A DNA stretch of 31,234 nucleotides from a virus. The notes below the pieces were generated by a model. That model did no database searches. It was not told the origin of the DNA and saw only the letters and a program-made list of their open reading frames with translations. Both the position numbers and the translations under genes were made by a program. Positions 3,513 to 21,499 of this stretch are shown piece after piece. The stretch spans positions 1-31,234 of IMG/VR virus record IMGVR_UViG_3300024343_000068; one strand, given 5' to 3'. The stretch's first letter is position 1. The number at the start of each line of letters is the position of its first letter.

Positions 3513-3522
3513 TATAGGGAGA
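3506..3522 (+). promoter_or_regulatory. Candidate phage RNA polymerase promoter before the oxygenase gene
   Basis: TTACTAATATAGGGAGA spans the end of the tail fibre gene and lies just upstream of the oxygenase start. The part TATAGGGAGA equals positions -4 to +6 of the classical T7 promoter. A second site at 30642-30658 on the other strand matches in 15 of 17 positions. The GGGAG is also the Shine-Dalgarno of the next gene, so part of the match may be a ribosome-site coincidence. No start site can be proven from sequence. Confidence 0.35.
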
Positions 3523-3528
3523 TGACCT

Positions 3529-4185: not shown

Positions 4186-4187
4186 TT

Positions 4188-5099
4188 ATGGCAATCGGCA
4201 ATTATAATACATTATCTGCAGCACAGACTGCTGCTACGTCAGTTACTACTTCAGAGAACAGTTTCAGAACCATTATGGATCAGGCTCTCGAGAAGTTGAT
4301 CGTAGGAGAAGACTTCCAAGTCTTGTCAGGAACTGTAGACGTACCTGTGCCAGACGGTGCAACGCATATGCAAGTAACTGCCTGTGGTGCTGGTGGCGGA
4401 GGCGGCGGTGGTAGTGGTACTGCCAATGGCGCACAAAACCAAGATCACGGATTCTCTGGAAGCGGTGGCGGTGGTGGTGGTGGTATCACCGGAGTACTTC
4501 TTGCTGTTACCTCTGGAGAGACTATAAGAATAGCAGTAGGTGCAGGCGGCACTGGGTCGTCGGGAAATAGACAGAGTGTGAGCCAAAATCCACAGTTGAA
4601 CCACGCAGCAAGTAACGCTGGGGGAGCTACTACAGCAACCAACCAATCAGGATCCGGTAACGTACTACTGTCCTTAGGTGGTGGTGGTGGCACTGCTCCA
4701 GCTTCTGGCGGTTACAACCTTAGCTCAGGTTCTGCTGGTACTGGGGGTGCTGTAAACGTAGGAGCTGCTACGACAAACACCTTCGGCGGTGTTGCTGGAA
4801 CAAGTGGCGGTGGTGGCAGTAACAGTGCACAAACAAACACTAACAACGCGCAGGTTGGATCAGCTGGAGCTGGAGGCATAGCATCTGGCGGAGGTTTCGA
4901 AGGACTGGTATTAACACCTGTCACAGGACAGAGATTCTCCTTATCGCAAACCTCTACCGTAGAAGCTCGATCAGGAGTAGATGGCGGATTTGGGTCTGGA
5001 GGTGCTGGAGGCGCTGCGGCATACAGACTCCAGCGGCTCGCAGGTGACGGAGCTGACGGCGGTGACGGAGTATTCTTCGGCAGATTCGTAAAGATATAA
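4188..5099 (+). CDS. Glycine-rich tail adhesin-like protein
   Basis: Length 303 residues, start two bases after the previous stop, with AAGGAGA upstream. The N-terminus (about residues 1-45) is a short helical/linker section. From about residue 50 there is a V(D/P)VPxGAxxMQVTACGAGG segment followed by many polyglycine runs and a GETIRIAVGAGG strand, as in the glycine-rich domain of phage tail proteins. Polyglycine sandwiches of this kind form receptor-binding tips in T-even-type adhesins; the link here is by composition and context. The protein ends in DGADGGDGVFFGRFVKI-type residues, a closing beta strand. It lies between the oxygenase and a tail-fibre chaperone, which supports a role at the fibre tip. 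The long open frames on the opposite strand are proline-rich mirror images of the glycine codons and are not genes. Confidence 0.75.
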   Translation: MAIGNYNTLSAAQTAATSVTTSENSFRTIMDQALEKLIVGEDFQVLSGTVDVPVPDGATHMQVTACGAGGGGGGGSGTANGAQNQDHGFSGSGGGGGGGITGVLLAVTSGETIRIAVGAGGTGSSGNRQSVSQNPQLNHAASNAGGATTATNQSGSGNVLLSLGGGGGTAPASGGYNLSSGSAGTGGAVNVGAATTNTFGGVAGTSGGGGSNSAQTNTNNAQVGSAGAGGIASGGGFEGLVLTPVTGQRFSLSQTSTVEARSGVDGGFGSGGAGGAAAYRLQRLAGDGADGGDGVFFGRFVKI

Positions 5100-5109
5100 G
5101 GAGACAATT

Positions 5110-5466
5110 ATGGCTAGATATATCCTAGTAGACGATACTACCAGATTAGTAGAGAACGTCGTTAAATCAAGCGTTACTCCTTTAGCGTACGTAGGCAAAA
5201 CTTGGTACATAGCACCAATAGATGCTGGTCCAGGAGACACTTACACCGTTGAAGGTGTGTGCGTGAAACCTTTAGTAGAGGCCGTAGAGGTTTCTCTTGA
5301 AGAGATTCGTTTACAGCGGGACAAACTCTTGGTCGAGTCCGATTGGACTCAGTGTCGAGATGTGGTGCTGTCTAACGACACAGAGTGGGCAACATACAGA
5401 CAAGCGTTGCGAGACATGACAGAAGATTATGTCCTAACGGCAGACCCTGTTTGGCCAACTCTTTAA
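5110..5466 (+). CDS. Phage tail fibre assembly chaperone-like protein
   Basis: Length 118 residues; AAGGAGA precedes the ATG. The C-terminal 60 residues carry the pattern of phage tail assembly chaperones (Phage_tail_APC / DUF4376 type): a basic helix with RDKLLxESDWTQ, then EWATYRQALRDM. The N-terminal half is a short beta-rich section ending in a linker (VEAVEVSLEEI). Such proteins help fold or attach the fibre tip and are usually encoded directly downstream of it, as here. Its codon preference (GAC, GGA) matches the two genes before it and differs from the genes after 5.5 kb, so the three appear to travel together. Confidence 0.75.
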   Translation: MARYILVDDTTRLVENVVKSSVTPLAYVGKTWYIAPIDAGPGDTYTVEGVCVKPLVEAVEVSLEEIRLQRDKLLVESDWTQCRDVVLSNDTEWATYRQALRDMTEDYVLTADPVWPTL

Positions 5467-5497
5467 AATAAATACAGACAACATAGGCACCTTTATA

Positions 5498-5941
5498 ATG
5501 CAAGGACAACTATTACTACCTGAGGAAGTGCTGGCCCAGTGGCCTGAGATAGCCCCCTTAGTAGCCTCATTCTTAGATAAAGGTGAAGGTGAATCCACAG
5601 TATTCGATATCGCACAGAAATGTATTAGTATGCGCTATCAATGTTGGACTGTGAGAGAGGAAGGTAAGCTCATCTGTTTATGTATAACTAAGATAGACAC
5701 GTACCCTACCTTCAAGGCATTACATATTATAGGGATTGCTGGTAAAGCTATGAGATCATGGCAACACTTCCATCCTGAGTTAGAAAACTTTGCCAAGTTT
5801 AATGACTGTAAAAGAATTACACAATGGGGGCGTACTGGTTGGACTAAGAGATTAGAACAACTAGAAGGTCAACATGGTGAAAAATATAAGGTAATCCATA
5901 CCGTTATGGCTATGGAATTAATAACAGACAAGGGGATTTAA
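5498..5941 (+). CDS. Conserved-looking phage protein, weak GNAT-acetyltransferase-like character
   Basis: Length 147 residues. The central strand-helix pattern (GKLICLCITKI, then LHIIGIAGKAMRSW) and the later CKRITQWGRTGW segment are reminiscent of small GNAT-like proteins found between head/tail and internal-protein genes in podoviruses. I do not see a clear acetyl-CoA P-loop (QxxGxG/A), so catalytic activity is doubtful and no function is claimed. The start has almost no Shine-Dalgarno: the 31-nt gap before it contains only A/T-rich sequence and TTTATAATG. Codon preference returns here to GAT/GGT, so this gene marks the right edge of the tail-tip cassette. Confidence 0.6.
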   Translation: MQGQLLLPEEVLAQWPEIAPLVASFLDKGEGESTVFDIAQKCISMRYQCWTVREEGKLICLCITKIDTYPTFKALHIIGIAGKAMRSWQHFHPELENFAKFNDCKRITQWGRTGWTKRLEQLEGQHGEKYKVIHTVMAMELITDKGI

Positions 5942-5942
5942 C

Positions 5943-6614
5943 ATGGGCGGAAGTTCACCAACATCAATTGAAACAATACCAGAATGGTTACAACCATACC
6001 TAGAGAACACATTAAAAGAAGGTGAAGACCTATATAGTGCTGATGCATTTAGTCATGTTGAAGGTCTAACTGACGAACAGAAAGAAGGTATGGCACTCAC
6101 TAAGGGTGGTGTGCTAGGCCAGACTGATACTGCTGAGAAGTCGGCTATGGGTCGCGATGTACTACTTAATGCAGCCCAAGGTGGTAATGTTGTTGATTAT
6201 GACAACACTAACACACAAGCTATTAAAGATGCAGCAATACGTAAGAGTCAACAGGCCTTCGGTGATACTGCAGGGGCTATGGCATCTGGAGGCTTAGTAG
6301 GTGGTCGCCGTGCTGAATTGGTTAAGTCTCAACGTGATGCTGAACTAGCTTCCAGTTTAGCTGATATTGACTATAACGACTACAATACTAGGCGTAGCCA
6401 AGCATTATCTTCTGCTGGTAGTGTCATTAGTTCTGGTTCAGATATACAGAATCAGTATAGTAAGCCGGGTGATACATTATCTGGTGTGGGTGCAGGTATT
6501 CAGGAACAGAATCAACGAGAAGCTGATGCACCTTATCAGGGCTTTCAACGATGGTTAGGCACTTTACAAGGTGTACCATCCTCACCTAATGCAACTGGCA
6601 CTGGAGGTAAATAG
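5943..6614 (+). CDS. Putative internal / DNA-ejection protein
   Basis: Length 223 residues, starting MGGSSP after GGGGA, one base after the previous stop. It is predicted mostly helical, with Ala/Gly/Gln/Ser richness and a central segment (about residues 105-165) of GGxVGGRRAELVKSQRDAELAxxLADIDYxDYxxRRxQAL. A C-terminal YQGFQRWLGTLQG precedes a Gly-rich tail. Short helical proteins of this composition sit ahead of the large ejection proteins in many podoviruses. No enzymatic motif is seen. Function is inferred from position and composition. Confidence 0.55.
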   Translation: MGGSSPTSIETIPEWLQPYLENTLKEGEDLYSADAFSHVEGLTDEQKEGMALTKGGVLGQTDTAEKSAMGRDVLLNAAQGGNVVDYDNTNTQAIKDAAIRKSQQAFGDTAGAMASGGLVGGRRAELVKSQRDAELASSLADIDYNDYNTRRSQALSSAGSVISSGSDIQNQYSKPGDTLSGVGAGIQEQNQREADAPYQGFQRWLGTLQGVPSSPNATGTGGK

Positions 6615-6616
6615 TT

Positions 6617-7300
6617 ATGGGTTATCCATGGGAAAGAAAGGAAGAACCAACACCATCTAGTGTTTACTCTGCACCTGTAGTTGTAGCCCCACTAGGTGAC
6701 TACCGTACTAACAGTTATGGTGAGGCTGGACGTGGTGGTGCTAATTTAGATAATGAGACGAGCCGTATAGAGAGCGTAGTTAATGGTGTACCTGTTACAG
6801 ACATATCTACTGGTGCGAGTAGTGCTGTATATGAGAACCAACCCTCAATATGGGATGCAATAATAGGTTCAGACCTAAGTCCTGAGACCCCTTCACAAGA
6901 AGAGCTAATGGCAGACCCTTCATTAATGACTGATGACATGTGGGGATGGCAACATAGTCAAGGTGTTGGTTCAACTGGTGGTAATAATGAGAATAGCGGT
7001 AGTGTAGCTGCTACTGTATCTCCACCTCGTGTTCATGGCACCTTAGGTGATCTTGGTAATAATAATAATAATATTAGCACTAACACCTACGCTGATAATT
7101 ATTTCCGTGCTGTACCTGACTCTGTATTCGCAAGTGTTGTAACTGCACCTAATGCAGGTGGCATTTCTAGCCCTAGTTTAACTGGTGTACCAATTAGTTA
7201 TGGCAACAGCCGTAATGGTGGGCGTCAGTGGAACTCTGGTGTATTCGGTCAACAAGCAGGTGGTAGTATGGCCACAGCTGCTACATCAGGAGAAGGTTAA
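6617..7300 (+). CDS. Hypothetical low-complexity virion-module protein
   Basis: Length 227 residues; GGAGG in the end of the previous gene serves the ATG. It is rich in Ser, Gly, Asn and Thr, low in Lys, and has an NNNN run near residue 150 encoded by an AAT repeat. I find no domain, signal peptide or membrane segment. It shares the coupled layout of its neighbours (its TAA overlaps the next ATG), so it is co-translated with them and probably a structural or packaged protein. It is not recognised. Confidence 0.55.
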   Translation: MGYPWERKEEPTPSSVYSAPVVVAPLGDYRTNSYGEAGRGGANLDNETSRIESVVNGVPVTDISTGASSAVYENQPSIWDAIIGSDLSPETPSQEELMADPSLMTDDMWGWQHSQGVGSTGGNNENSGSVAATVSPPRVHGTLGDLGNNNNNISTNTYADNYFRAVPDSVFASVVTAPNAGGISSPSLTGVPISYGNSRNGGRQWNSGVFGQQAGGSMATAATSGEG

Positions 7301-8055
7301 TGGAAAATGAACAGGGTAGTAAATATTTAGGTATGAACCCGCTACAAGCACTTCAAATACAACCTATGGCTCTTCAAGGTGGTGGTCAGATGTTTAGTAC
7401 GCCAGACCCTCTCATGGACATAGGGAAGGCATTGGCTATGAAAACTATGGGGTTGTATAATGGTACCGTTGGAGTTGAAGGTCAACGTACAGGTCAAGAC
7501 ACAGTGCCTGCAATGTTATCTCCCGGTGAAGCCGTAATCCCTGCATCAGCTGCACAAGATCCTGCTAATCAGGAAGCTATTCAGGGCATGGTTAATGAAG
7601 GTCAACAAGATCAAGGTATGGCTGCACAGATATTGCAATCCCTAGGGCTACCTATGGATCCCCAGCTTATTGCTATGATTGAAGACATGTTAGCACAAGG
7701 TGTTCCACCTGAACAGATAGTGCAACAATTACAAGAGCGCATAGGGCAGACACAGGGTGGCCAAGAAGGTGTTATAGAAGCTCCACAACAAGCTCCTATG
7801 GAAGCTCAAGGCGCACCTATGGCACCTATGGAGGAAGGTATGGGTGTACCTCAGGGTCTATATAGTGGTACAACGGGTGTACAATCTCCATTATCAGCTA
7901 AGGGTCAACGTGAACAACAGAAGTTCCAAGCTGAAGAATCCCGTAAAGATGCTGCATTCCAAGCTGACCAACGCCGTAAAAACGATGCACATAATGTATC
8001 TATGAAACAGAAATCCGAAAGTGCTATGTATGCACGTAGTATGAGTGGAGAATAA
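7300..8055 (+). CDS. Putative virion protein with DTVPAMLSPGE motif
   Basis: Length 251 residues, TAATG-coupled to the gene before. At about residues 66-83 it has GQDTVPAMLSPGEAVIPASA, a sequence pattern I know from phage tail and tape-measure-like proteins (TVPxMLTPGE). Residues 95-165 are Gln/Met-rich helices (MVNEGQQDQGMAAQIL, EDMLAQGVPPEQIVQQL). The last 60 residues form a highly charged helix with FQAEESRKDAAFQADQRRK, a likely coiled coil. There are no membrane segments. The probable role is as an internal or tail component; the exact role is unknown. Confidence 0.55.
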   Translation: MENEQGSKYLGMNPLQALQIQPMALQGGGQMFSTPDPLMDIGKALAMKTMGLYNGTVGVEGQRTGQDTVPAMLSPGEAVIPASAAQDPANQEAIQGMVNEGQQDQGMAAQILQSLGLPMDPQLIAMIEDMLAQGVPPEQIVQQLQERIGQTQGGQEGVIEAPQQAPMEAQGAPMAPMEEGMGVPQGLYSGTTGVQSPLSAKGQREQQKFQAEESRKDAAFQADQRRKNDAHNVSMKQKSESAMYARSMSGE

Positions 8056-8057
8056 TC

Positions 8058-9287
8058 ATGGCAGCAACTACTAAAGCGCAACGTATGCAGGCTATTAGAG
8101 AGGCAGCTGAAAGGGAAAGAGCTGAAATGGCTGAGGCTATGCGCCAGTCCGAACTACTTAATGAAGAGATCAATAAACAAATTGCAAAACGTAATCGGCA
8201 GAGGTATTTAAAGGCCAACAGCACAGTCGTACCTTCTATGAGTCCTGATGAAGAGGATGTGATTGATAGGGATATTAGAGCGAAGAGAATAGCTGATATT
8301 GAAAATGACCTAGGTCGCTTGGGTGAAACCCATACCATGAAGGACGGTACGGCAAAATTTGGAACACCTGAATATCTAGAGGAACCCGGTATTAACCCAG
8401 AGTTTGCTTACAGAGCTATGTTGGCTGCAAATGCTAATGGTGATAACAGGGTGACCCCACAGACGCTTGCCGGAACTCCTTCTATATTAGATCGTATGTT
8501 CCAGTGGGGTGATGATATATGGGAAGGGTTCTTTAATGATGAGAGTGGTGAGACTTTAGCACGAGCTAAACAGGACATCTCAGGGCCATCATTCGGTGAA
8601 GAAGGTTATAACTACCCTGAATACACAGGGCCTGAGGATGAAGGGTTAAGGGATGTTACAGTAGTACCATTCTTAAAAACACCTAGGCTTATGCAGACGG
8701 CTTGGAATGCAGGCCAACAAGTCCTTAAGGATTTCAAAGCACCAACAGTACCTGGTCCTTCTCAAATAGCAGCCGCCTCTAGGGGTGCAGCTGGCAGTAG
8801 ATCTAGTGCTAGGCAGAATCCAAATATAGCCCCCGTGAATACCCAAGCTACAGGTCAACAAATAGTACCGCGTAATATGCAGCAGGTTGGCCCGCGGGTT
8901 AACCGTCAAGTAGCAGTACGTGACAACACTAGGCAGGGTGTACCGATGCCTGGAGCTAATTGGAAACCACCACATTTCAGCACACCTATCAAGACTTCTG
9001 ATGTGCTAGCAAGTACAGTGCTAAATAATCAACCCCCGATAGAAACAGTAGTTGTTACACCACCTTTAGGGCCTAAGCCTGAAGCCAAACCCACACCTAA
9101 GGATATACCACAGAATGGCGGCCATGACAAGGGTGGATACCCTGACAAACCTAAGGTAAGTGGAAAAACTCTACCGCAGCGACAGGGTTATAAGGTTGTG
9201 AAAACTACCGATGGTAGCCCTGTAAAATCAGGTAATGGTTATATGTGGACTAAAGATTATCAACATGAAATGTGGGGAGACAGCTGA
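8058..9287 (+). CDS. Hypothetical virion-module protein with N-terminal coiled coil and proline-rich C-terminus
   Basis: Length 409 residues; GGAG seven bases before the ATG. Residues 1-50 are strongly helical and charged (coiled coil likely). Residues 60-200 are mixed, with acidic patches (PEEDVIDRD-type). From about residue 215 it becomes disordered, rich in Pro, Gln, Asn and Arg (ASRGAAGSRSSARQNPN, TPPLGPKPEAKPTPK). I see no catalytic signature. Its TGA overlaps the next ATG. Long disordered, Pro/Gln-rich proteins are common among ejected internal proteins, so the placement fits, but this is inference. Confidence 0.55.
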   Translation: MAATTKAQRMQAIREAAERERAEMAEAMRQSELLNEEINKQIAKRNRQRYLKANSTVVPSMSPDEEDVIDRDIRAKRIADIENDLGRLGETHTMKDGTAKFGTPEYLEEPGINPEFAYRAMLAANANGDNRVTPQTLAGTPSILDRMFQWGDDIWEGFFNDESGETLARAKQDISGPSFGEEGYNYPEYTGPEDEGLRDVTVVPFLKTPRLMQTAWNAGQQVLKDFKAPTVPGPSQIAAASRGAAGSRSSARQNPNIAPVNTQATGQQIVPRNMQQVGPRVNRQVAVRDNTRQGVPMPGANWKPPHFSTPIKTSDVLASTVLNNQPPIETVVVTPPLGPKPEAKPTPKDIPQNGGHDKGGYPDKPKVSGKTLPQRQGYKVVKTTDGSPVKSGNGYMWTKDYQHEMWGDS

Positions 9288-10639
9288 TGGGAGCTTTAGA
9301 TAAAGACGAAAAAAATACAGGTATCTTTGGAAGACCTCTACCTGACAGAGATTCATATATTCGCCCTACCATGGAATCTGTCAACCCTCTTACAGGTATA
9401 GGTGCAGCTGCTAAATCGGTAGCAGGAGCAGTAGGTACGGGTATCGAAGCCATAGCAAATACAGGTGAAACTCTCTACAACGTGGCCGATAATTCTATTG
9501 AAGATATATCCGCAGGTTATACTGGGGAGGAATCTAAATCAGATTGGAGTTTGGACGGATTGGTCCCTGATTGGGATGATACCGTACGAGGGGATGGAGT
9601 AGTACCCCCAGTCACAGGGCAAGAAGACGATAGCACAGACACAGGGTTGGATGATGGTACTAAGTTTGATATCGTCACTGGTGACGCTACTGATGCTAAC
9701 GGGAAGGATATAGGTGACCCCCCTACCAATCTCAGTATTTTCGATAAAGCCTCTAGTCTATTTGGTGACATCTTAAGTGCATCTGAGTTGAAACGTATGA
9801 CACTGTACACCATTGGTGGCCTTATGACTGGTGGTTCTTTCGGTGGCTCATTTAAATGGGCTGGTACGCAGATTCTTAATGAGCAACAAGCTACCTTGAA
9901 GAACAACGCCACCCTTGCATCTGCCGCAGGTAAAATGAAACCTGTACAACTTAAGGTTAGCAATAAAGACACGCCTGTTAATGGTTATTGGAGTGCAGCT
10001 AAAGGTGGTTATGTAGATGCAGTAACACAGGAACTATTACCTAATGCTGAAAAGTATCAAGAAAGGCATTCACCCACATCGCTTGCCTCTCACTATAAGG
10101 ATATAGCAAGTGGTATAATAGCTAAGGAAGGTAAAGATGGTCCTGTATTACTAGGCGACACAGCTAATAATAGCTACAATAAGTTTAGGATTAAGGTAGA
10201 GCAGTGGCAAAGAGAAGGTGCTGATATTAGCCTATCTGACGCAACTACAATAGCAGCGTATGAAAGTGCAGTCACCTCAGCCATTGCGGCTAACAGAAGT
10301 GGTGATGTACAAGTTACACCTGAAAGCTTCTTTGATAATCTACTTATCAAGGGCCAGATGTCTAATACAGCTTGGGGTGCTGGGGCCTTTAAAGATAGTG
10401 ATGGTAATGATATAGATGTAGCTGCTAACAATACCCTTATGACTGGGCTAGGTGCAGCTCTTAGTTACTACAAGAGTAAGAACCCTAAAGTTACCTCATC
10501 TGCGGTTAATGCTGGCATAATCAATAAGTGGAAATCGATGGGGCCAGATGCACGAGCTAAGTTTGATAATAAATCAAGAGACGGTAGCTCTGGGTTCGTT
10601 ACATATGTGGACGAATTACTCAAACAAACTAAGCAATAA
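9287..10639 (+). CDS. Putative internal / ejection protein with small-residue hydrophobic segments
   Basis: I chose the ATG at 9287 (450 residues) over the in-frame GTG at 9272, because GGGGAG lies seven bases upstream of it and it forms a TGATG overlap with the previous stop. Residues 30-50 (GIGAAAKSVAGAVGTGIEAIAN) and about 170-190 (YTIGGLMTGGSFGGSF) are Gly/Ala-rich hydrophobic stretches of the kind that could insert into membranes. The section between is acidic. The C-terminal 200 residues are helical, with no motif I recognise. Position before two very large proteins suggests part of an ejectosome-like set. Confidence 0.55.
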   Translation: MGALDKDEKNTGIFGRPLPDRDSYIRPTMESVNPLTGIGAAAKSVAGAVGTGIEAIANTGETLYNVADNSIEDISAGYTGEESKSDWSLDGLVPDWDDTVRGDGVVPPVTGQEDDSTDTGLDDGTKFDIVTGDATDANGKDIGDPPTNLSIFDKASSLFGDILSASELKRMTLYTIGGLMTGGSFGGSFKWAGTQILNEQQATLKNNATLASAAGKMKPVQLKVSNKDTPVNGYWSAAKGGYVDAVTQELLPNAEKYQERHSPTSLASHYKDIASGIIAKEGKDGPVLLGDTANNSYNKFRIKVEQWQREGADISLSDATTIAAYESAVTSAIAANRSGDVQVTPESFFDNLLIKGQMSNTAWGAGAFKDSDGNDIDVAANNTLMTGLGAALSYYKSKNPKVTSSAVNAGIINKWKSMGPDARAKFDNKSRDGSSGFVTYVDELLKQTKQ

Positions 10640-10651
10640 ATGAGGTGAGTA

Positions 10652-13600
10652 ATGGGTTTAGATGATATAGATGTAACCTCCAATACTATTAATGTGACTG
10701 ATGAGGACGGTAGTAACGAGAGAGAAGCCAGCTTTATTGACTTTGATACGATGAAAGATGTTAGGGGCCAGAAGTACAGGTTAAGTGACATCAATGCGGG
10801 AGAAGTAGCTGGTGATTTCTTAGGTATATTATCTATGGGCGAGGTAGGTTCTAGCGAGCTGACTGAGCAGGGAGCTATACTTGCTAATCATTACGGTTTT
10901 AGTCGCATAAAGCATAAAGGTTCTGACAGCTATGACCGTGGAGTTATAGATTTGGTTAATGAGCAGGGTCAGAACTTGTCAGATTTTGGTATAGAGGAGA
11001 GGTTAGTAGGTGCAAATCGAAACACTTCTCAAGAGGTTCTAACCAATCGTATGCTGAATAGGTTTGTGGATAGCCTAGGTGAAGTTATGTCACCTGCTTC
11101 TGTTGCAGATAGGTCTAGGGGTATTATCAATGCTGCCATTAAGGATGCTGATGTAGCGCCTATATGGGCTAAGAATGCTGTCAACGAAGAACAGTTTGCA
11201 TTAGCAAAGAGGATGTTTAGTCATGAGGAATTAGCAGCTCTATCAGAGGCTTATAAAGTAGAGACTGACCCTGCGAAGAAGCAACGTATACAGAATGCAC
11301 TATATGAAGCCAAGAATAACTCAAACCCTTTTATAAGTGTAGAGAATCGCCAACGAGGCAGATCTATAGATAATCAATCTTATAGTCAATTCACTACATC
11401 ATTGGAGCTAGGTCTAGAGAATACGGCAGAAGCCATGTATGGTATTGCCGACATGGTAGGCCAAAAAACAGGTTGGGAGTGGTTAGAAGAAGAAGGGGAG
11501 GCAGGTATATCCCGTAGTAAACAAGATGCAGCCCTATTACCTGAAACATTAACAAGCTATAACCAGATAAAAGATACTGGTGATGCCTTCCGCTGGGTGA
11601 CAAACAATGTAGCTATGTCATTACCCTTTATGGGTGCAGTGGTTGCAGGTAGTGTAGTCACAGGTGGGCTAGGTGGGGCAGCTACTCTAGGTACTGCAGG
11701 TTCTATGGTAGTAGGTTCATTACCTTCTGCTATCCTAACCACAGGTGGTATATGGAATTCTATGCCTGAGGGTGAGAAGAGTGCATCTATCGCCGTAGCA
11801 GGTGGTTTTGCAGTAGGTCTATTGGATAGATTTGGTTTCACAGGTATGCCTAAGGCTGTGACAAATGCAGCAGCAGTCAAAAGTGGCTCTATGAAAGATC
11901 TATTTAAGAGTATACAAGAAGAAGTTGCTCAAGCATTAGTTAAAAAAGAGGGTAATACGTTTACCATAGAGCAAGCTAGAAAGAAGGTAGTACTAGCATC
12001 TCGTGCTCAATTATTGTTAATGGCAGATCAGTTCGGTAAACAAGCATCTAAGCAATTACGTGACCTGAAGTTAGTTAAAGATACTGTGCGTCAAATAGCT
12101 CGTGCCACTACCCGAGAGGCTGCTACTGAGACAATACAGACTGCAATCGAAGAGGTCGCAGCAGTTACAGGTAACAGTGCAGAGCTAGATCCTGCCACAT
12201 TCAAAGAGGCATTGATTACATCCGCAGTCATTGGTGGTGTATTTGGTTCTACATTTGCAATGCCCAGTGTTGCTAAACAATACTCTGATAGAAGGACTAT
12301 CCTAGCTCAATTAGAAAACTCGACCAAAGCAGAGAGTCAACTCGATGAAATGGCGAGGGATGATCAGGCAGAGGCCTTAGGTTCAGGTAAGATCGACAGA
12401 TCTAATGATGATAACTTGGCTGATATTGATAGTCTAAAAGAAGCCGACGAAGAATACTTCAACAACAGGGTACTTAGTGGTCGAGCCAAAAGATCAGAAA
12501 CTAGTACCGCGAGTAGACTCGCCAAGGCATTCGCCAAGAGACCTAGTGGTGCCTTCGTTCCACACCTAGTAAATATGATAAATAAGATAGGCTTCTATAA
12601 AGAGAATGGTGACAGAAGAATACTACTATCAAGATTAGGTAGTGTATTAGGTGAGTTGAATATTAACTCAGGGCCTTCCCATCAACAGTACACACAATTG
12701 TTAAGGGGTGATTTGACTTCTATATTACCTGACCCTTCATACGTAGCACAGAAGTTAGGCACTAATGTACGTAATGCTAATACTCTCATAAGACGAGCCA
12801 TGGAAGACATTGATAACGGTGTCAGATATACTGGACCTAAGGCAGTTGAAGTGAATGCTATCATAGAGGGTTATAGGGAGAGCCAAGCTAATTTAAAAGA
12901 GAAGCTTTTTGAGTTAGGTCTAAATGAAGAAGCAACAAAGCTAAAGGATGGTGGATTAGAAATACTGAACCTACGACAGTTGGATCAGCGTAGAATCCAA
13001 AATGATAGAGATGGCTTCTTAACGCAATTAGAAGGGATGGGCATGAGTCCTACCCATGCTAAAGCTACGTTAGATAGTCTGTTATCAGCCAATTCCTCAG
13101 AGGCAGCAGAGGCTTTTAATAACAATTATAGTAAAGAAATAGCCGATGGTAGGCTACGTGACTATATGACTAATGACATACTAGGTGCCTATCGCGCAGG
13201 ATTCGGCAGTATAGCTAAACGTGTGAGTGATGAGAAGTATCTAGGCCAAGGTCAGTCTAAGTTGAATAAAGTTTTTAAGGCTATGGTAGATACTAAGGAA
13301 ATAACCGAGGCCGAAGCTGATGAGCTTGCAGCAGATATACAGGATTACTTAGAGATAGCTAATGGTGATTACGGTAAATGGGAAAGCCCTTGGATTAAGT
13401 CTGTTCAGGATAACCTAATCCTACTCACCTTCCTAAGAGGTATGGGTTTCTCTGCTATTGCCTCATTCCCAGAGGTACCCTTAACACAACTAGGAGTGCC
13501 ACAGGATATCGCATTCAGATACATGCGTGACCATGCTAAAGAGGGGGCTAAGAATCTTGCTGAATACTTAAACCACATGGCATCAGCCGCTCCCGGCTCT

Positions 13601-14665
13601 CCAATACCTAGGAAAGTATTTAGCAAGTCTGATCGTGAGAAAGGTGGCTCTATCCGTGAACAGTTGACTAAGCTAGGTTATGGTGGTAGTGAGGGTAGTG
13701 CTGTTAAGCAGTACGGTATTGAAGTTGGTAAATGGCAACAGAAGATTGCTGAACACTATGCTAAAGCGGTAGGCCTAACTAATATTACTGATTACACAAG
13801 AGGTATAAGGGCTGGTATGGCAGCGGATGTTATAAATCACTATGCATCTATCCTAGCACTAGATCCTACTGCAACAACTAAGATGGGAAGGGAAGCCTAT
13901 ACAGAGCTTCGTGAATTAGGTGTTAATGTTGAGTTCATGACTAGACTACACACTAGATGGGCTAAGGGCGGTGATGTAGACTCGAAGGGCACTGGATCGT
14001 TTGAAAGTGAGGCTGAAGAGAAACAATTTAGAGACAACCTAGATATTGGTACATTAAACTTTGTGGACCAAGCTATTGTTAACCCTCTACCCGGGCGAGT
14101 CCCTAAAGGTTATAAGCATCAGAAGTTAGCTTTCTTCAACCAATTTCAAGGCTTCATAGCACATTTTCAATCTAAGATATTACCTAAATTATATGGTAAG
14201 ATTACAAATGGAGCACCAGGTGCAGCCTCCAACGCAGTTACAGTAGCCCTAACCATGACCATGGCAGCAATGCTTGGTACAATGCTAAGGGATGAAATCA
14301 AATACGGAGAGACCACACCTTACTTAGATGACTGGGATAAGTTCCGTAGAGTAATGTTCTCTACTGGATTGTTAGGTACTGGTGAGCGACTATGGACAGG
14401 TATAGACCCTCTATATGGTAGCTCATCCTTACTGCCAACAAGTGGTAACTCCATCGGTGCCTCATTATCACGTACTGCTGAAGGTGTATTAGGTGAAGCA
14501 GCTGCTTATGGTACTGTGAAAGACGTAGCAAATAGTGTATATGAGTTAGGTTTTGGTGATAATAGGAAGGCTACAAAGAGTGCCTTGAAGCTTGTGCCTG
14601 TTTTTGGTTCAGTGAATCAAGCCAGAGATAATATATTAGATAGAATACATGGGAAGGAACTTTAA
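10652..14665 (+). CDS. Large internal virion / DNA-ejection-type protein (1337 aa)
   Basis: GAGGTG precedes the ATG. The N-terminal 300 residues are mixed alpha helical. Residues about 320-380 hold two or three Gly/Ala/Val-rich hydrophobic segments (LPFMGAVVAGSVVTGGLGGAATLG and onward), with further ones near 382-400, 525-540 and 1185-1205 (NAVTVALTMTMAAMLGTML). The remainder is long, helical and charged. The end (LLPTSGNSIGASL, then LVPVFGSVNQARDNIL) resembles the C-terminus of very large podovirus virion proteins that are ejected into the host. I see no lysozyme or transglycosylase signature. Its size is similar to T7 gp16 (about 1318 residues), which forms part of the DNA translocation channel, but I cannot show homology. 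It is directly followed by the polymerase-like protein, so both may be packaged and ejected. Confidence 0.65.
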   Translation: MGLDDIDVTSNTINVTDEDGSNEREASFIDFDTMKDVRGQKYRLSDINAGEVAGDFLGILSMGEVGSSELTEQGAILANHYGFSRIKHKGSDSYDRGVIDLVNEQGQNLSDFGIEERLVGANRNTSQEVLTNRMLNRFVDSLGEVMSPASVADRSRGIINAAIKDADVAPIWAKNAVNEEQFALAKRMFSHEELAALSEAYKVETDPAKKQRIQNALYEAKNNSNPFISVENRQRGRSIDNQSYSQFTTSLELGLENTAEAMYGIADMVGQKTGWEWLEEEGEAGISRSKQDAALLPETLTSYNQIKDTGDAFRWVTNNVAMSLPFMGAVVAGSVVTGGLGGAATLGTAGSMVVGSLPSAILTTGGIWNSMPEGEKSASIAVAGGFAVGLLDRFGFTGMPKAVTNAAAVKSGSMKDLFKSIQEEVAQALVKKEGNTFTIEQARKKVVLASRAQLLLMADQFGKQASKQLRDLKLVKDTVRQIARATTREAATETIQTAIEEVAAVTGNSAELDPATFKEALITSAVIGGVFGSTFAMPSVAKQYSDRRTILAQLENSTKAESQLDEMARDDQAEALGSGKIDRSNDDNLADIDSLKEADEEYFNNRVLSGRAKRSETSTASRLAKAFAKRPSGAFVPHLVNMINKIGFYKENGDRRILLSRLGSVLGELNINSGPSHQQYTQLLRGDLTSILPDPSYVAQKLGTNVRNANTLIRRAMEDIDNGVRYTGPKAVEVNAIIEGYRESQANLKEKLFELGLNEEATKLKDGGLEILNLRQLDQRRIQNDRDGFLTQLEGMGMSPTHAKATLDSLLSANSSEAAEAFNNNYSKEIADGRLRDYMTNDILGAYRAGFGSIAKRVSDEKYLGQGQSKLNKVFKAMVDTKEITEAEADELAADIQDYLEIANGDYGKWESPWIKSVQDNLILLTFLRGMGFSAIASFPEVPLTQLGVPQDIAFRYMRDHAKEGAKNLAEYLNHMASAAPGSPIPRKVFSKSDREKGGSIREQLTKLGYGGSEGSAVKQYGIEVGKWQQKIAEHYAKAVGLTNITDYTRGIRAGMAADVINHYASILALDPTATTKMGREAYTELRELGVNVEFMTRLHTRWAKGGDVDSKGTGSFESEAEEKQFRDNLDIGTLNFVDQAIVNPLPGRVPKGYKHQKLAFFNQFQGFIAHFQSKILPKLYGKITNGAPGAASNAVTVALTMTMAAMLGTMLRDEIKYGETTPYLDDWDKFRRVMFSTGLLGTGERLWTGIDPLYGSSSLLPTSGNSIGASLSRTAEGVLGEAAAYGTVKDVANSVYELGFGDNRKATKSALKLVPVFGSVNQARDNILDRIHGKEL

Positions 14666-14667
14666 TT

Positions 14668-17600
14668 ATGGCTTTAAATATTAATGTAAAGAGTCAAGAC
14701 GCAGGTAGCAGGTTAGATGAGCAGGCAATCAAAAGGCAGGCTATTATTGAGCAGGCACAATCAGGTAAAAGCCAAATTCAAAGCCAGTTAGAGGCCAACG
14801 GAATTGTACCTACCATTGCCCCTTCTCAAGTGACCGATAACCTAACCCCCGTACCCTCCATAGCCCCTACACCTGCAAGGACAGAGGGTGTACCAGAGCT
14901 AAATGCTTATACACAGAGTGTTGGTAATACTGTTGCTGAACGTGGGTTAACCCTTGATGATATGAACAAGAGGGTAAACGATCAAAGCTTTGAAAGCTAC
15001 CAGAAGGGGGATCGAGACAGATTCTCTCACATGGATCCAGATACTGGACAGCCTGTGTTTACCAGTGTAACAGAAGAGGATTTCACAAAGGATGCTGATA
15101 AGTTAGCACTACCTTCTCCTGATGCTATTTTAGATGTGAATCAATTTAAAGACACAAGCAAGTATAAATCTGCTTACCAGCACAGTGAACGAGACGGCCA
15201 AGAGGTGTTTGATAGATTAGAACACTTCGAGGACTGGGTGATACCTCATTATGAAAATGATGTAGAATTTAAAAGGATATTGGATAACACAGGTGTAGCT
15301 GACTTAGGTCAATTCGCTAGTCTAGCCAGTTTAGCTAATGCAGGTATACTGAATGCCCAATCATCATATGTAGCAGGTAAGAATGTATCGGATATCGGGT
15401 CTATCTTTGAGGCTGAAGGTGCTAGCTACACAGCAGATGCAGTAGATCATCCTGCACAGTTAGGTGTTACTGAGAAAGGCTACGTCATGGCAGCGCAACG
15501 TAGGTTTAAGGACTTAGCTAGGAGGGCTAAGGTAACCTCAAACCTTACGCCAAGGGACTACCAACTTCTAGGCACCAAGCTATTAGAGTATAGTTTAGAT
15601 AGTGGTCAAATTAAAACCACCAAAATAGGTGGCAAGAAGTTCTATATACCCAATGGTAATCATACAGGTACTAAGTTAGGTACACAGAGTGATCATCTTA
15701 TTGGTGCAGAATTACAAAACCCAGTGTCTGATAGCCCAACAACAGGTGGTGACGCTATTCAGAAGGGTAGAGCTTTAAAGAAATCAAGAAAGACTCAAGG
15801 TAACAATATAATTGAGCAGGCAACTGTAGAGTTGGCAAAGGATACTATGGGCCATATGGCTTATGGTATGGATAAAATGGTGTCTACTGCTATCATGGTT
15901 CAGATTATAGATGTAATTACTAATCTAAAATTCACTGACCCAAATACAACAGGTGACCCTAAAGAAGCGTTAACCTATAGTACTAGTGAATTCGCAAAGA
16001 TGTTCAAACTAGATAGTGCTACAGCTGAGGCATCTTACAACACTAAACTTTTCAATTCTATTAGTGACACATTAGAGCAAAAGAAAAGTATAGCTATAGC
16101 TGTAAATAGGATTACTGCCACCCGCCAAGATGAGATACTTAACAATCTAAACAAACAGTTGATGCTCATCAAGAAGTCTAAGAGCGGTGAAGAAGGCTAC
16201 GCCGAAGCCAATAGAGCCTTCTACTATGCATTCAGTAGTAGTGATATTAACGGGCGTATAGCTAACGCTTCCCACAACGGTAACTATACCTTAGACAAGG
16301 TGGTTGCACGTCAGACGCAGGGTGCTAAGATTAACCCACGTATAAACGTCACTAAGAGTAGCTTCCTCTCAAAAAATGAGAGTATTAACAGTAAAGCTAA
16401 ATCCTTGTTCCAACATGAAGGTAACCCTACTGCCTTTGATAAAGCCTTAAATAGTCTAGATGCTGCTACTGAAGCTGAGATCTCCTTCCGTGTTGTTCTT
16501 GTAAAGAATTTATTACACGATGCCAGTGAAGGTTTTAAGAAAGCAGGCCTATCCGGTGCAGAGAGTATTACCCAGTCCCAAAGTGATGCTATGGCTTTTG
16601 TACAAGAGGCTGGCTTAAAATCTTTATCTAACGTATCTAATAAGGCTTTATATGAGACTTATGTAAAGATAAACAGTGCATCACCTACTACTCTTATTCA
16701 GCATTTCGCAGTTCAAGGTAGAGCTTTAAAGACTCAATTAAGTGGTACAAGTAACTTCATAGAAGACTTACCTGTAATTGAATTTGACCCACTAGAAAGA
16801 GTTAGTGAACGTGCGGATAAGGCAGTCGATGCTTGGGGTGATTTCACCATACCAGACATGAGTGCATTAAAAGAGTTTGCTAATGTTCGTGGTGAGACTC
16901 GTGCTAAAATGTCTATAAGAGCTGATGCCCTTAAGTACATGGACGCTATGAACGGTCAAGGCCCTTCTAACTTTGAATTAGAGTTTGAAGTGGAATTAGA
17001 CGCTACCCAATCAGGTGCATTTCTACAGGCACTGATTGCACCTAGTGAGAAATCCCAAAAGATATTGAATAGCCTAGGTTTTGAAACAAATGTCACGGGA
17101 GGTGACCTACGTGATGTTGCAAAGGAAATTCTACTGGAAGGTAATGTCAACCTAAAGGATACTACAGACCCTGAAGTTACTGCTGCTTGGGATGGGTTTA
17201 TATCCAATGCCCTAACAGGTGAAAAGTCTGGTATTGCCCGGGAGTTCCTATTAAAGCAACCTATCATGCAGTTCTTCTATGGCAAACCCGCCAGTATGTT
17301 TGGAGACTTATCTAATGAATTGCTCGGTTGGTTTAGTGATGAAATAAATAATTCACCTATATTAAGTGGTATATCCCCTGCGGATAGATCTGTAGCAGTC
17401 AAGGGTATCATTGAGAAGATGTTAAGTAGTCCTCAATTTGATGCATCCTATGCACAGATAATGAAGAAGGTAGGTAGATTCTTAGCTGTAACTGATTCTG
17501 ACTTAATCATAGAAGGGCCTATGGGTAATATAAATTTATCTGTAGAGAGTGTTGTGGCAAGCATGAAAGAGATAGCAGGCCAAGACCCTAATGCAGATCT

Positions 17601-18507
17601 TAAACAATTAGAGCTTGACATATTAGATATCTTCGACAGAGATGGTGAGAAAATTGAATACTTAGTAACAAGTAATTCAACTACAACAGGTGGACCTAAG
17701 CAAGGTCGTCATTATGATTCAAGTAAACCAGCAGAGGGTAACAACTTTAGAACTGGCCCGGGTAAACGCCTTACTGACTCTTTGGGTGTTCTAGTTATTC
17801 ATCAGTTAGATAATGCGATTATGAACCACACAGTCAACGTGGTTAATAAGGACAGGCCTAGGAATAACCCATATCCTGCCAAGATTATTTATGATGCAAT
17901 CATACCTAACGCAGCAGGTTATCTAAGATACTCTCACGTTTATAATAACGAGTCAATACCTCTTGCCCAGAAGTTTAATATATATCGATCTATTCAGAAG
18001 GCAGCAGCTAAAGGCCTTGCAAAGACCCAGAGGGATGTCGCTAAATCTGGTCATGTGAATATCAGTGTTATAGAAAGCCCTGATGGTAATGTAAGGGGTG
18101 TTGAGCGTCATGCTGTCTTAACACAGTACCTAGATGACTATGAGATCAATAAACCTAAACGTGTTGATTACCCTAATCAAGCCTCTTGGAATAGGGCAAT
18201 GTCTAAATATGATTCTAGGAAAACCATAACCCCCCTTAAGCTAGAGGTTAATACTGCTAAGAGTATGGGTTATATCCCACCTATAATTAACGAACAATTC
18301 TTAGAGTTTGGGGTTATATCAGACGAGCAGCCCATGGTCACCAATGCAAGGGAACGGGCCAATATGTTTATAAAATCTGTAGACTACATTAGCTTAGTTA
18401 ATCGCTGGCATAGGAGAATGGAGGTTGAATTAGATTCTATGGCAGAAGTTTCTGAGAGAGAGAAGAAGGAAATAAAAATTAAAGGAACAATAGCCCATTT
18501 GACTTAA
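14668..18507 (+). CDS. Candidate virion RNA polymerase: 1279-aa protein with T7/N4-family polymerase motifs
   Basis: Start ATG two bases after the previous stop, with AAGGA upstream. Four signatures of single-subunit RNA polymerases occur in order. FYYAFSSSDINGRI at 518-531 contains DxxGR (D526-R530). ELDATQSGAFLQAL has motif A Asp778 and the SG at +4/+5. R858 EFLL K863 QPIMQFF Y871 G has the exact K-x7-YG spacing of T7 motif B and the same Met four after Lys. IHQLDNAIM (H1045, D1048) parallels T7 VHSQDGSH, followed 28 residues later by YDA (Asp1076) where T7 has HDS (Asp812, 25 residues later). A-to-B is 85 residues (T7 94) and B-to-C 205 (T7 173). Both catalytic Asp residues, the Lys and the Tyr are present. 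Odd points: Tyr replaces the motif C His, and the DxxGR-to-A stretch is about 252 residues (T7 116). The N-terminal 500 residues are Gln-rich and unassigned. As last gene of the virion module it is probably packaged and ejected. T7-family membership is a motif-based reading; transcriptional activity is inferred. Confidence 0.8.
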   Translation: MALNINVKSQDAGSRLDEQAIKRQAIIEQAQSGKSQIQSQLEANGIVPTIAPSQVTDNLTPVPSIAPTPARTEGVPELNAYTQSVGNTVAERGLTLDDMNKRVNDQSFESYQKGDRDRFSHMDPDTGQPVFTSVTEEDFTKDADKLALPSPDAILDVNQFKDTSKYKSAYQHSERDGQEVFDRLEHFEDWVIPHYENDVEFKRILDNTGVADLGQFASLASLANAGILNAQSSYVAGKNVSDIGSIFEAEGASYTADAVDHPAQLGVTEKGYVMAAQRRFKDLARRAKVTSNLTPRDYQLLGTKLLEYSLDSGQIKTTKIGGKKFYIPNGNHTGTKLGTQSDHLIGAELQNPVSDSPTTGGDAIQKGRALKKSRKTQGNNIIEQATVELAKDTMGHMAYGMDKMVSTAIMVQIIDVITNLKFTDPNTTGDPKEALTYSTSEFAKMFKLDSATAEASYNTKLFNSISDTLEQKKSIAIAVNRITATRQDEILNNLNKQLMLIKKSKSGEEGYAEANRAFYYAFSSSDINGRIANASHNGNYTLDKVVARQTQGAKINPRINVTKSSFLSKNESINSKAKSLFQHEGNPTAFDKALNSLDAATEAEISFRVVLVKNLLHDASEGFKKAGLSGAESITQSQSDAMAFVQEAGLKSLSNVSNKALYETYVKINSASPTTLIQHFAVQGRALKTQLSGTSNFIEDLPVIEFDPLERVSERADKAVDAWGDFTIPDMSALKEFANVRGETRAKMSIRADALKYMDAMNGQGPSNFELEFEVELDATQSGAFLQALIAPSEKSQKILNSLGFETNVTGGDLRDVAKEILLEGNVNLKDTTDPEVTAAWDGFISNALTGEKSGIAREFLLKQPIMQFFYGKPASMFGDLSNELLGWFSDEINNSPILSGISPADRSVAVKGIIEKMLSSPQFDASYAQIMKKVGRFLAVTDSDLIIEGPMGNINLSVESVVASMKEIAGQDPNADLKQLELDILDIFDRDGEKIEYLVTSNSTTTGGPKQGRHYDSSKPAEGNNFRTGPGKRLTDSLGVLVIHQLDNAIMNHTVNVVNKDRPRNNPYPAKIIYDAIIPNAAGYLRYSHVYNNESIPLAQKFNIYRSIQKAAAKGLAKTQRDVAKSGHVNISVIESPDGNVRGVERHAVLTQYLDDYEINKPKRVDYPNQASWNRAMSKYDSRKTITPLKLEVNTAKSMGYIPPIINEQFLEFGVISDEQPMVTNARERANMFIKSVDYISLVNRWHRRMEVELDSMAEVSEREKKEIKIKGTIAHLT

Positions 18508-18515
18508 TATAAGTT

Positions 18516-18571
18516 AAAAAAAAATACCCCCACAGGGATACGTTATGTATCTCTGAGGGGGTTTTTTTATT
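18516..18571. terminator. Bidirectional intrinsic terminator between convergent operons
   Basis: A run of nine A's (18516-18524) precedes a stem of CCCCC/GGGGG, CAG/CTG and GATAC/GTATC (arms 18527-18541 and 18547-18561) with one A-A mismatch, one G-T pair and a 5-nt loop. Seven T's follow (18562-18568). Read from either strand it is a GC-rich hairpin with a U-tract. It starts 9 bases after the last + strand stop and ends 3 bases before the last - strand stop, so it insulates both transcription blocks. Confidence 0.95.
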
Positions 18572-19087: not shown

Positions 19088-21499
19088 TTAACAGAAGAAG
19101 TAATCCGAGTCTAGGACTTCTGCTACATCTAATGTACCCTCTTCAGGTAGTTTAATATTACCCATATCTGACTTAGATAGGACGTTGTCTCTGATATGTT
19201 CGAACTGACCTCTAGGGCCATACATATCTACGAATACTTCTTTGATTAGACCGGATAGTTCTTCCACATCACATGCATGAGTAGCAAATGAGTCATGTAC
19301 AGGTGCTATCTGTCCATCAAACTTATCCATGACTAGTGACATATGAGCAGCATCTTGTGAGTGGATATAATTAGGGGCTATACCCGATGCATACCCTTGC
19401 TTATCAGGGATTGTGGTCTCTACAGCTAGTACATGCTTCAATCTATTACGGCTACTAATGCCCTTTAATACTGAATCAATCTTCCATTCCTTCATAAGAT
19501 ATGACCTGTATTTCACAGGAAATCCTGAAGGGGAGGTCCAAGATAATTCCCTGGCTCCATTACCCTTAGCAATATAACTAGAGATCATATTGAACTGTTG
19601 GCTTAATCTATCTAGCTCCAGTATATCCTCGTTAGTCTTTAACTTCTTACGTTGGATAACTTTCTTAGCAGCTATAATCTTACTACGATCATGCTTAGTT
19701 ACAGATTCACCAGTTAACTTGTGTAGATAACCTGTTTCACCCAATTCATAAGACGCGAGCTGTTGTAGGAAATCTTTAATAGTGTCTGCGCTAGGGCATA
19801 CCTTATTGATAGCTTGTATAACAGACCTACTAAGTAGAGTGCAATCAAACATATCAATATCGTATTTACTAGTGAAACCCTCGGTATAACAATCTTCATA
19901 CATGTTATCCGCTATACGTGATGTTCCGGCTGCATACTGACGTACCATAGTAGCACGTTTAGTAATACCCTTTCTAATGTGTTTCATAGGTATCTTACGG
20001 GGGTTAAACCAATCAGGGAGGTTATCCACTAATTCCTTAGCCACCTTAATATACAGATCACATGGTACATCTGTCTTAGTAAGCCCTACCATAGCTCCTG
20101 TTGTAGCATCTTTGCTCATAGCAGCACTATGTTGTATACCATTACACATACCATCAATAGGTATGGGTAGGTATGAGATAACTTCTTCACCCTCTTCACA
20201 TGAGTTCCATGCCAACCACTCACAGGCACATGCATAAAAGACTATAGGTTTCTCACACTTAATAAATTTACCATTAAGGGCAGTAGTTAGAACCATATCA
20301 TAGTTATTTTCTAACCACCTAACTCTATCATTAAGGTTCATCTTGTCTACAGAGATGGTCTCTAACCCTTCCGATTCTAGCAGTGCTTTGTAATCATACT
20401 CACACCAAGAAGGGATAGATCCCACTGCATACGATTCATTGAAGCTATTAGCCGTGTGTATGGCTAACCATGTAATTCCCTTAGGGGTCAGGGGCTTTCC
20501 TTCTCCGAATTGTAGCAGACCTCTAGCTAGGTCACCTCCTTGATAGTTAAGGAACTGCTCCCGAATATAGTATCTTCCTCTATAGTCAGTATCCACTAAC
20601 TGAAAGAAAGGTTTACCATATCCTTTAAGGGTGCTAGCCTTTTCTTTAATGATTTGGAACTCATAGTTTTTACTACGAGCTTTTAATACTTTCTTCTTCT
20701 TGTTCCAGAGATCTACCTCTACTGCATATACCTCTTTAGTTTCCAAAGTCTCATTCTTCTTCAGGTTATTGTAAGCCTTACGTACAGCTAACATAGAACC
20801 AGCCTCGGGTAAAGCTGTTTCTTCATGTAAGAAGTAATCAGTATTAGCTATCATAGCCTCATAAACACTTTCGTTGATAGCCCATTTCATTTTATTAAGA
20901 GAGTTTAGTGATCGTAGCCAAGGTGCATCGATATACTGAGGGAATTCCCTTTCATCCTGCATACCCCAACGCTTAATTGCAGGATAGCTTAATGTATTTA
21001 GCTCAGTAATGCTCTCTGGCTTATGTAGAACAGTGTTAGGTAGCAATGATCCAACTATAGCTATGGGTACATCACTAATAAAGCCCCACAGAGGGCCTGG
21101 AGTGACCACGTAGGGTGCTGTTATCGCTCTATCAGAAAATCCTTCTTCACGGAATGTAGTTATACAATCTTTAGCTTTAAATGCCTCTATAAATAAGTCA
21201 CCAAGACGTATGGCCTTATCCTTAGGTAGTGGTTCACCCCCCATGTAAGCACTCAGGGATTCCCCTATTGCTACAGATACAGACGTTAACTTAGCCATAC
21301 CCGCTATGTCACCATTAGCATCACGAGAGAATTTTAACTGGATCTTCTCAGATGCTAGGTATACCATAGTGGGTAATTTAAGTTTGTAGTCAGGGTGAAA
21401 GGCTAATACTATGCAACCAGTATTACCTCTAGGGCTATTGATGTTAGCCTTTTCTACACGTTCAATCAGATACTCAGCTATTTGTTCGATTAAGTTCAT
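19088..21499 (-). CDS. T7-like single-subunit DNA-directed RNA polymerase
   Basis: Length 803 residues (T7 883). All family signatures are present: DTDYRGRYY (DxxGR, about residue 305), PIDGMCNGIQHSAAM (motif A, Asp near 448), KGITKRATMVRQYA (motif B, Lys near 514), PNYIHSQDAAHM, and APVHDSFATH (motif C, Asp near 736). The C-terminus DSDYFFC matches the aromatic foot of T7 polymerase (FAFA). It would transcribe phage promoters. The region before DxxGR is about 115 residues shorter than in T7, so the N-terminal promoter-binding and melting part is reduced. Motif B has YA where T7 has YG. The start follows GGAG at a 10-base distance. The gene is near the distal end of the replication operon rather than first among early genes as in T7, so it is likely made after another polymerase has acted. 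Confidence 0.97.
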   Translation of the reverse strand: MNLIEQIAEYLIERVEKANINSPRGNTGCIVLAFHPDYKLKLPTMVYLASEKIQLKFSRDANGDIAGMAKLTSVSVAIGESLSAYMGGEPLPKDKAIRLGDLFIEAFKAKDCITTFREEGFSDRAITAPYVVTPGPLWGFISDVPIAIVGSLLPNTVLHKPESITELNTLSYPAIKRWGMQDEREFPQYIDAPWLRSLNSLNKMKWAINESVYEAMIANTDYFLHEETALPEAGSMLAVRKAYNNLKKNETLETKEVYAVEVDLWNKKKKVLKARSKNYEFQIIKEKASTLKGYGKPFFQLVDTDYRGRYYIREQFLNYQGGDLARGLLQFGEGKPLTPKGITWLAIHTANSFNESYAVGSIPSWCEYDYKALLESEGLETISVDKMNLNDRVRWLENNYDMVLTTALNGKFIKCEKPIVFYACACEWLAWNSCEEGEEVISYLPIPIDGMCNGIQHSAAMSKDATTGAMVGLTKTDVPCDLYIKVAKELVDNLPDWFNPRKIPMKHIRKGITKRATMVRQYAAGTSRIADNMYEDCYTEGFTSKYDIDMFDCTLLSRSVIQAINKVCPSADTIKDFLQQLASYELGETGYLHKLTGESVTKHDRSKIIAAKKVIQRKKLKTNEDILELDRLSQQFNMISSYIAKGNGARELSWTSPSGFPVKYRSYLMKEWKIDSVLKGISSRNRLKHVLAVETTIPDKQGYASGIAPNYIHSQDAAHMSLVMDKFDGQIAPVHDSFATHACDVEELSGLIKEVFVDMYGPRGQFEHIRDNVLSKSDMGNIKLPEEGTLDVAEVLDSDYFFC

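What the first reader, a model, noticed from the sequence alone, without database searches (positions are those of the whole stretch)
14668..18507. Compact (1279 aa) candidate virion RNA polymerase at the end of the structural operon
Directly visible: DINGR at 526-530, ELDATQSG with Asp778, R858...K863-x7-Tyr871-Gly, IHQLDNAIM (His1045, Asp1048), and YDA with Asp1076. The K-x7-YG spacing and the distances A-B 85, B-C 205, and 28 residues between IHxxD and the motif C Asp closely follow T7 RNA polymerase (94, 173, 25). Established knowledge: N4-type phages carry a much larger (about 3500 aa) virion RNA polymerase with divergent T7-family motifs, and crAss-like phages carry a related one. Inference: this is a packaged, ejected polymerase of a smaller and apparently different lineage. 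An annotation pipeline would probably label it hypothetical or internal virion protein.
Basis: partly seen in the sequence, partly recalled or inferred. Interest (0 to 1): 0.92.

Follow-up and report, generated by a model that had tools for sequence, protein, structure and literature searches.

The report
Compact N4-type virion RNA polymerase
This marine phage gene encodes a small, stand-alone relative of the giant RNA polymerase that phage N4 carries in its particle and injects into bacteria; it suggests that this strategy exists, in stripped-down form, well outside the N4 family.

Summary
No single-sequence search finds a relative (Pfam, PHROGs, PDB), but following the neighbouring T7-like RNA polymerase gene through IMG/VR gave a 33-sequence family, mostly in the same genomic position. 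Across all 33 the few invariant residues include Arg530, Asp778, Tyr871-Gly872 and Asp1076. Lys863 is invariant in one subfamily but replaced in most of the other. An unguided profile comparison matches the 13-member N4 virion-RNAP family (97.0%, E 1e-10; decoys 0.1%), motifs in register. AlphaFold models of two subfamilies match single-subunit RNA polymerases (Z 19.9 and 23.6 to T7). So it is a single-subunit RNAP of the N4 virion type, about a third of N4's length, without N4's extra regions. Packaging and ejection are inferred: end of the virion operon, no cysteine, a separate T7-like RNAP with 14 cysteines, and exchange with the virion module while replication genes stay nearly identical. 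New variant of a known kind, not a wholly new enzyme. Activity, promoters and virion presence are untested; the related phage CRP-7 is cultured, so they can be tested.

The parts
14668..18507 (+). candidate compact virion RNA polymerase (1279 aa, 0 Cys)
   Evidence: translation; family; models
15460..18504 (+). region modelled as single-subunit RNAP core (residues 265-1279)
   Evidence: AlphaFold2 pLDDT 73.3, pTM 0.77; VIA Z 19.9 T7 RNAP, Z 15.2 over 581 residues to N4 mini-vRNAP 3c2p
16243..16257 (+). DxxGR-type motif, DINGR 526-530; Arg530 aligns with N4 Arg424
   Evidence: invariant Arg in 33 sequences; hhalign register
16297..16311 (+). K544-x3-R548, candidate counterparts of N4 K437 and R440 that hold the first nucleotide
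   Evidence: invariant in 14 group-1 sequences; N4 roles from PMC4496689
16993..17001 (+). motif A, E776-L-D778 (N4 E557-A-D559)
   Evidence: D778 invariant in 33; E776 invariant in group 1; N4 family alignment
17254..17283 (+). motif B, K863-x7-Y871-G872 (N4 K670NPLTITIY678G)
   Evidence: Tyr-Gly invariant in 33; Lys invariant in 19 group-2 sequences and in the window but Arg/Gly in the CRP-7-type branch
17800..17811 (+). H1045-x2-D1048; Asp conserved in group 1, Glu in group 2, His not conserved
17893..17895 (+). motif C Asp1076 in the turn of a beta hairpin
   Evidence: invariant in 33; hairpin strands 807-810 and 813-817 of the model
10652..14665 (+). 1337 aa internal/ejection-type virion protein, 0 Cys, co-conserved upstream neighbour
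   Evidence: PHROG 6958 virion structural protein 4.5e-23; homologue of CRP-7 gp34
5943..10639 (+). five Cys-free genes of the structural operon leading into the ejection-protein block
18515..18568 (.). bidirectional terminator between the virion and replication operons
   Evidence: A-tract, GC hairpin, T-tract in the sequence; minus-strand terminator
19088..21499 (-). ordinary T7-like RNA polymerase, 803 aa, 14 Cys
   Evidence: Pfam RNA_pol 1.7e-59; PHROG 414 6.5e-100; Cys count

Best explanation
The gene encodes a compact single-subunit RNA polymerase of the N4 virion type. Shown: homology to the N4 vRNAP catalytic domain, conserved active-site residues, predicted right-hand polymerase fold. 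Inferred: it is packaged as the last of a set of cysteine-free ejection proteins, passes through the tail largely unfolded at the start of infection, refolds in the cell and transcribes the early genes from the incoming genome. Those genes lead to the phage's own T7-like RNA polymerase, which transcribes the later genes. This is the N4 scheme of a virion polymerase followed by a second phage polymerase, with a stand-alone polymerase of about 1,150-1,500 residues instead of a 3,500-residue fusion protein.
For: Profile comparison with 13 Schitoviridae vRNAPs: group 1 (with the window) 91.6%, E 8e-7; group 2 97.0%, E 1.1e-10; R, E-x-D, K-x7-YG in register, and a second collinear but weak local match over motif C (E 0.026). 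Reversed and 15 column-shuffled N4 profiles give 0.1%, E 0.48 or worse. Group 1 and group 2 are homologous, E 5.7e-31. In 19 group-2 sequences only 12 residues are invariant and 6 are the catalytic set. Two models without templates match single-subunit RNAPs above everything else. Same position, next to the T7-like RNAP, wherever the flank of close RNAP relatives is long enough. 0 Cys, like N4 vRNAP (0 in 3500) and the neighbouring virion genes, against 14 in the T7-like RNAP. L047 and L048 share 97.8% DNA identity through the RNAP, then carry X genes of different subfamilies, so X belongs to the exchanged virion module.
Against: No virion proteomics or activity data. Motif-B Lys is Arg (Gly in L043) in the CRP-7-type branch, so that branch may be impaired or use another base. 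No N4-type hairpin promoters found in the window or CRP-7 by a simple scan. Exchange of the polymerase without exchange of the replication genes is hard to square with strict promoter specificity unless early promoters change too, which could not be checked. Model confidence is moderate, the distances between catalytic residues could not be measured, and residues 1-264 were not modelled.
Confidence: 0.8

Rival explanations
1. It is an RNA polymerase of the same fold but made late and used inside the cell, not packaged.
For: No direct evidence of packaging; the gene lies beside, though convergent to, the T7-like RNAP gene.
Against: It is in the virion operon, Cys-free as its virion neighbours, and exchanged with the virion module while the replication module stays almost identical. 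N4 vRNAP, its closest relative, is packaged.
Confidence: 0.1
2. A former polymerase kept as an internal ejection/structural protein, with catalysis lost in some or all members.
For: Motif-B Lys lost in the CRP-7-type branch; extreme sequence divergence.
Against: Both metal-binding Asp, the Tyr-Gly and the Arg are invariant in 33 sequences, most 12-18% identical to the window protein, and the window protein keeps the Lys; a structural relic would not be expected to hold exactly these residues.
Confidence: 0.07
3. An ordinary internal virion protein whose motifs are chance matches.
For: No useful Pfam, PHROG or PDB match by single sequence.
Against: Profile comparison, decoys, invariance and two structure models.
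Confidence: 0.02

Closest known systems
Phage N4 gp50 virion RNA polymerase (Schitoviridae), mini-vRNAP core 998-2103
   Same: Catalytic motifs including the E-x-D form of motif A and K-[NQ]-P in motif B, fold, no cysteine, last gene of the ejection-protein operon, a second phage RNAP in the same genome
   Different: 1279 aa against 3500; no room for N4's roughly 1000-residue N-terminal and 1400-residue C-terminal regions, no HExxH metallopeptidase motif; second RNAP is one 803 aa chain, not the split N4 RNAPII; the related isolate CRP-7 is not classified in Schitoviridae
T7 RNA polymerase (Autographivirales) and mitochondrial RNAPs
   Same: Right-hand single-subunit fold (Z 19.9-23.6), motif order and spacing
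   Different: No detectable profile similarity to the phage's own T7-like RNAP; virion operon; extra size
Roseobacter phage CRP-7 gp33 (MK613349, annotated hypothetical)
   Same: Homologue in the same position, 23% over 409 residues
   Different: Motif-B Lys replaced by Arg
Putative vRNAP of Stenotrophomonas phage StenR_269 and Zobellviridae large ORFs (PMC10747016)
   Same: Large Cys-free late protein suggested to be a vRNAP
   Different: That proposal rests on size, helices and no Cys only; sequence relation not tested here

Membership tests
Single-subunit (T7-type) RNA polymerases | DxxGR/TxxGR Arg, motif A Asp, motif B Lys and Tyr-Gly, motif C Asp in order | tested here: met
   all present in the window protein; R530, D778, Y871-G872, D1076 invariant in 33 sequences; Lys absent from the CRP-7-type branch
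Single-subunit (T7-type) RNA polymerases | right-hand palm/fingers/thumb fold | tested here: met
   predicted models of two subfamilies, VIA Z 19.9 and 23.6 to T7 RNAP over about 526 residues; predicted, not solved
N4-type virion RNA polymerases | sequence homology to the mini-vRNAP core beyond generic motifs | tested here: met
   hhalign 91.6% E 8e-7 and 97.0% E 1.1e-10, decoys 0.1%
N4-type virion RNA polymerases | giant multidomain polypeptide, core fused to metallopeptidase or other domains | tested here: not met
   1279 aa, no HExxH in any homologue
N4-type virion RNA polymerases | packaged in the virion and ejected | not testable with these tools
   context only
N4-type virion RNA polymerases | recognition of single-stranded hairpin promoters | tested here: inconclusive
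   no clear hairpins by a simple scan; window lacks the full early region
Schitoviridae | N4 core genome, 70-80 kb, split RNAPII | tested here: inconclusive
   window is a fragment; single-chain T7-like RNAP; CRP-7 genome 58 kb; CRP-7 head protein in a different PHROG but portal in the same PHROG 1216 as N4

The most novel reading that the evidence does not exclude
Phages outside Schitoviridae carry a compact, fast-evolving virion RNA polymerase that is swapped as part of the virion module between phages with nearly identical replication genes, so that early-transcription machinery travels with the particle module rather than with the genes it would transcribe.
Probability: 0.45. Interest if true: 0.82.

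Novelty: new variant of a known kind. Interest (0 to 1): 0.74.

Why it matters
N4-type virion RNAPs were described as confined to N4-like phages or prophages and almost always fused to a metallopeptidase (PMC5512222). A stand-alone core in a different group of marine phages gives a natural minimal version, helps separate what the polymerase needs from what the giant N4 fusion adds for ejection, and could explain how these phages start transcription without host RNAP. CRP-7 is in culture, so the claim is directly testable. The variable motif-B lysine is a natural experiment on a residue thought essential.

Tried and rejected
Single-sequence searches of Pfam, PHROGs and PDB gave nothing useful (weak DUF2092 hit below cut-off). 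Profile HMM against PDB sequences: nothing. Profile comparison with the phage's own T7-like RNAP: no signal, although N4 versus that family is itself only 20.7%. Genome-contig scan: no relatives. Known phages other than CRP-7: no tblastn match for several family members. Hairpin-promoter scan and repeats: nothing convincing. Sigma-70 promoter-like sites: 39 against 47.8 expected, uninformative. DNA polymerase A was considered because it shares K-x7-YG; the listed PDB matches of both models are single-subunit RNAPs, and in the viral library the first DNA polymerase is at rank 42 with E 0.07.

Full report
OBSERVATION. The window is a 31 kb virus record with two converging operons: structural genes on the plus strand from 3 to 18507 and replication genes on the minus strand down to 19088. 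The finding is the last structural gene, 14668-18507, 1279 aa; all named motifs and spacings are correct. The finding does not mention that the phage also has an ordinary T7-like RNA polymerase at 19088-21499 (Pfam RNA_pol 1.7e-59).

FAMILY. Single-sequence searches found nothing useful in Pfam, PHROGs or PDB. The T7-like RNAP led to Roseobacter phage CRP-7 (37%), whose gp33, annotated hypothetical, sits in the same place and is homologous at 23% over 409 residues. Scanning IMG/VR with the RNAP alignment gave 79 loci. Among the close RNAP relatives, wherever enough flank exists, the convergent neighbour is an ORF of about 1200-1500 aa, here called X. The X proteins form two BLAST groups that are homologous by profile comparison (E 8.9e-21, then 5.7e-31 with more members). 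A further scan added members from other contigs, several of which also carry RNR and T7-like RNAP genes.

POLYMERASE. In the 33-sequence alignment the other members are 12-18% (one 37%) identical to the window protein, and the few invariant residues include R530, D778, Y871, G872 and D1076. In 19 group-2 sequences the complete invariant list is R571, D771, G776, G794, R816, K876, Y884, G885, G976, E1047, D1073, D1157: half of it is the catalytic set of single-subunit RNAPs. N4 mini-vRNAP residues K437, R440 and E557 are given in PMC4496689; the other motif positions were recalled and then checked in the N4 sequence, and 12 other Schitoviridae vRNAPs were added. Unguided hhalign put R530, E776-D778 and K863-Y871-G opposite N4 R424, E557-D559 and K670-Y678-G, with E 8e-7 for group 1 and 1.1e-10 for group 2; motif C gives a second, weak, collinear match. 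Reversed and shuffled N4 profiles give 0.1%. N4 against the phage's T7-like RNAPs, a known true relation, gives only 20.7%, so the new family lies much nearer to N4.

STRUCTURE. AlphaFold2 on window residues 265-1279 with 33 sequences: pLDDT 73.3, pTM 0.77. On the group-2 member L142 with an alignment that excludes the window protein: 76.1 and 0.77. The best VIA matches are T7 RNAP (Z 19.9, 5.2 A over 527 residues; Z 23.6, 5.6 A over 526), then mitochondrial RNAPs; the N4 mini-vRNAP and gp50 structures are aligned over 561-589 residues, with Z 10.9-15.2 for the window model and 13.6-18.4 for L142. The structures alone thus place it among single-subunit RNAPs, somewhat nearer in Z to T7 than to N4; the N4 assignment rests on the sequence profiles. 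Motif-C Asp lies in the turn of a beta hairpin in both models.

VIRION ROLE (inferred). The gene ends the structural operon, after a protein with a virion-structural PHROG match. Seven consecutive genes, 5943-18504, about 4180 aa, contain no cysteine; the T7-like RNAP contains 14 in 803. N4 vRNAP has none in 3500. L047 and L048 are 97.8% identical in DNA over 5195 nt through the RNAP gene, then diverge completely before the end of X, and their X proteins belong to different groups; the window and L037 share 97% RNAP but 35% X. The gene therefore moves with the virion module.

WEAK POINTS. The motif-B Lys is Arg, or Gly in L043, in the CRP-7-type branch, with another Lys about one helical turn earlier. 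Whether that branch is active is unknown. No promoters were identified. If X is exchanged while the genes it would transcribe stay the same, either the early promoters change too or promoter recognition is loose; the contigs do not reach far enough to tell. Residues 1-264 were not modelled. Nothing here demonstrates packaging or catalysis.

KNOWN AND NEW. PMC5512222 states that N4-like virion RNAPs occur only in N4-like phages or prophages and are almost always fused to a metallopeptidase. PMC10747016 proposed vRNAPs in other podophages from size, helices and lack of Cys alone. The passages found in the CRP-7 paper describe only the T7-like RNAP of that phage (PMC6918029). I found no description of this compact family in the papers searched. 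It is a new variant of the N4 virion RNAP kind, not a new kind of polymerase.

Noticed in passing
L047:10686 and L048:5195: Clean recombination boundary between the replication and virion modules at the convergent junction; near-identical phages carry vRNAPs of different subfamilies.
   Followed up: partly
L043:5501-9994, L039:9354-13355, CRP-7 gp33 (L005:17859-21566): Motif-B catalytic Lys replaced by Gly or Arg, with a conserved Lys about four residues earlier; possible rearranged active site.
   Followed up: partly
window 28625-29830: DUF2201 metallopeptidase plus VWA-like protein in the early region; CRP-7 has a MoxR family ATPase in its early region, suggesting a MoxR-VWA pair in these phages.
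   Followed up: no
window 3529-4185: 2OG-Fe(II) oxygenase-like gene next to the tail fibre gene.
   Followed up: no
window 2292-2511: Two 109-nt direct repeats (83%) inside the tail fibre gene.
   Followed up: no
L131, L133-L139, L142: Homologues of the vRNAP in further contigs up to 62 kb, with T7-like RNAP and, in several, an RNR gene; apparently an undescribed phage group.
   Followed up: partly
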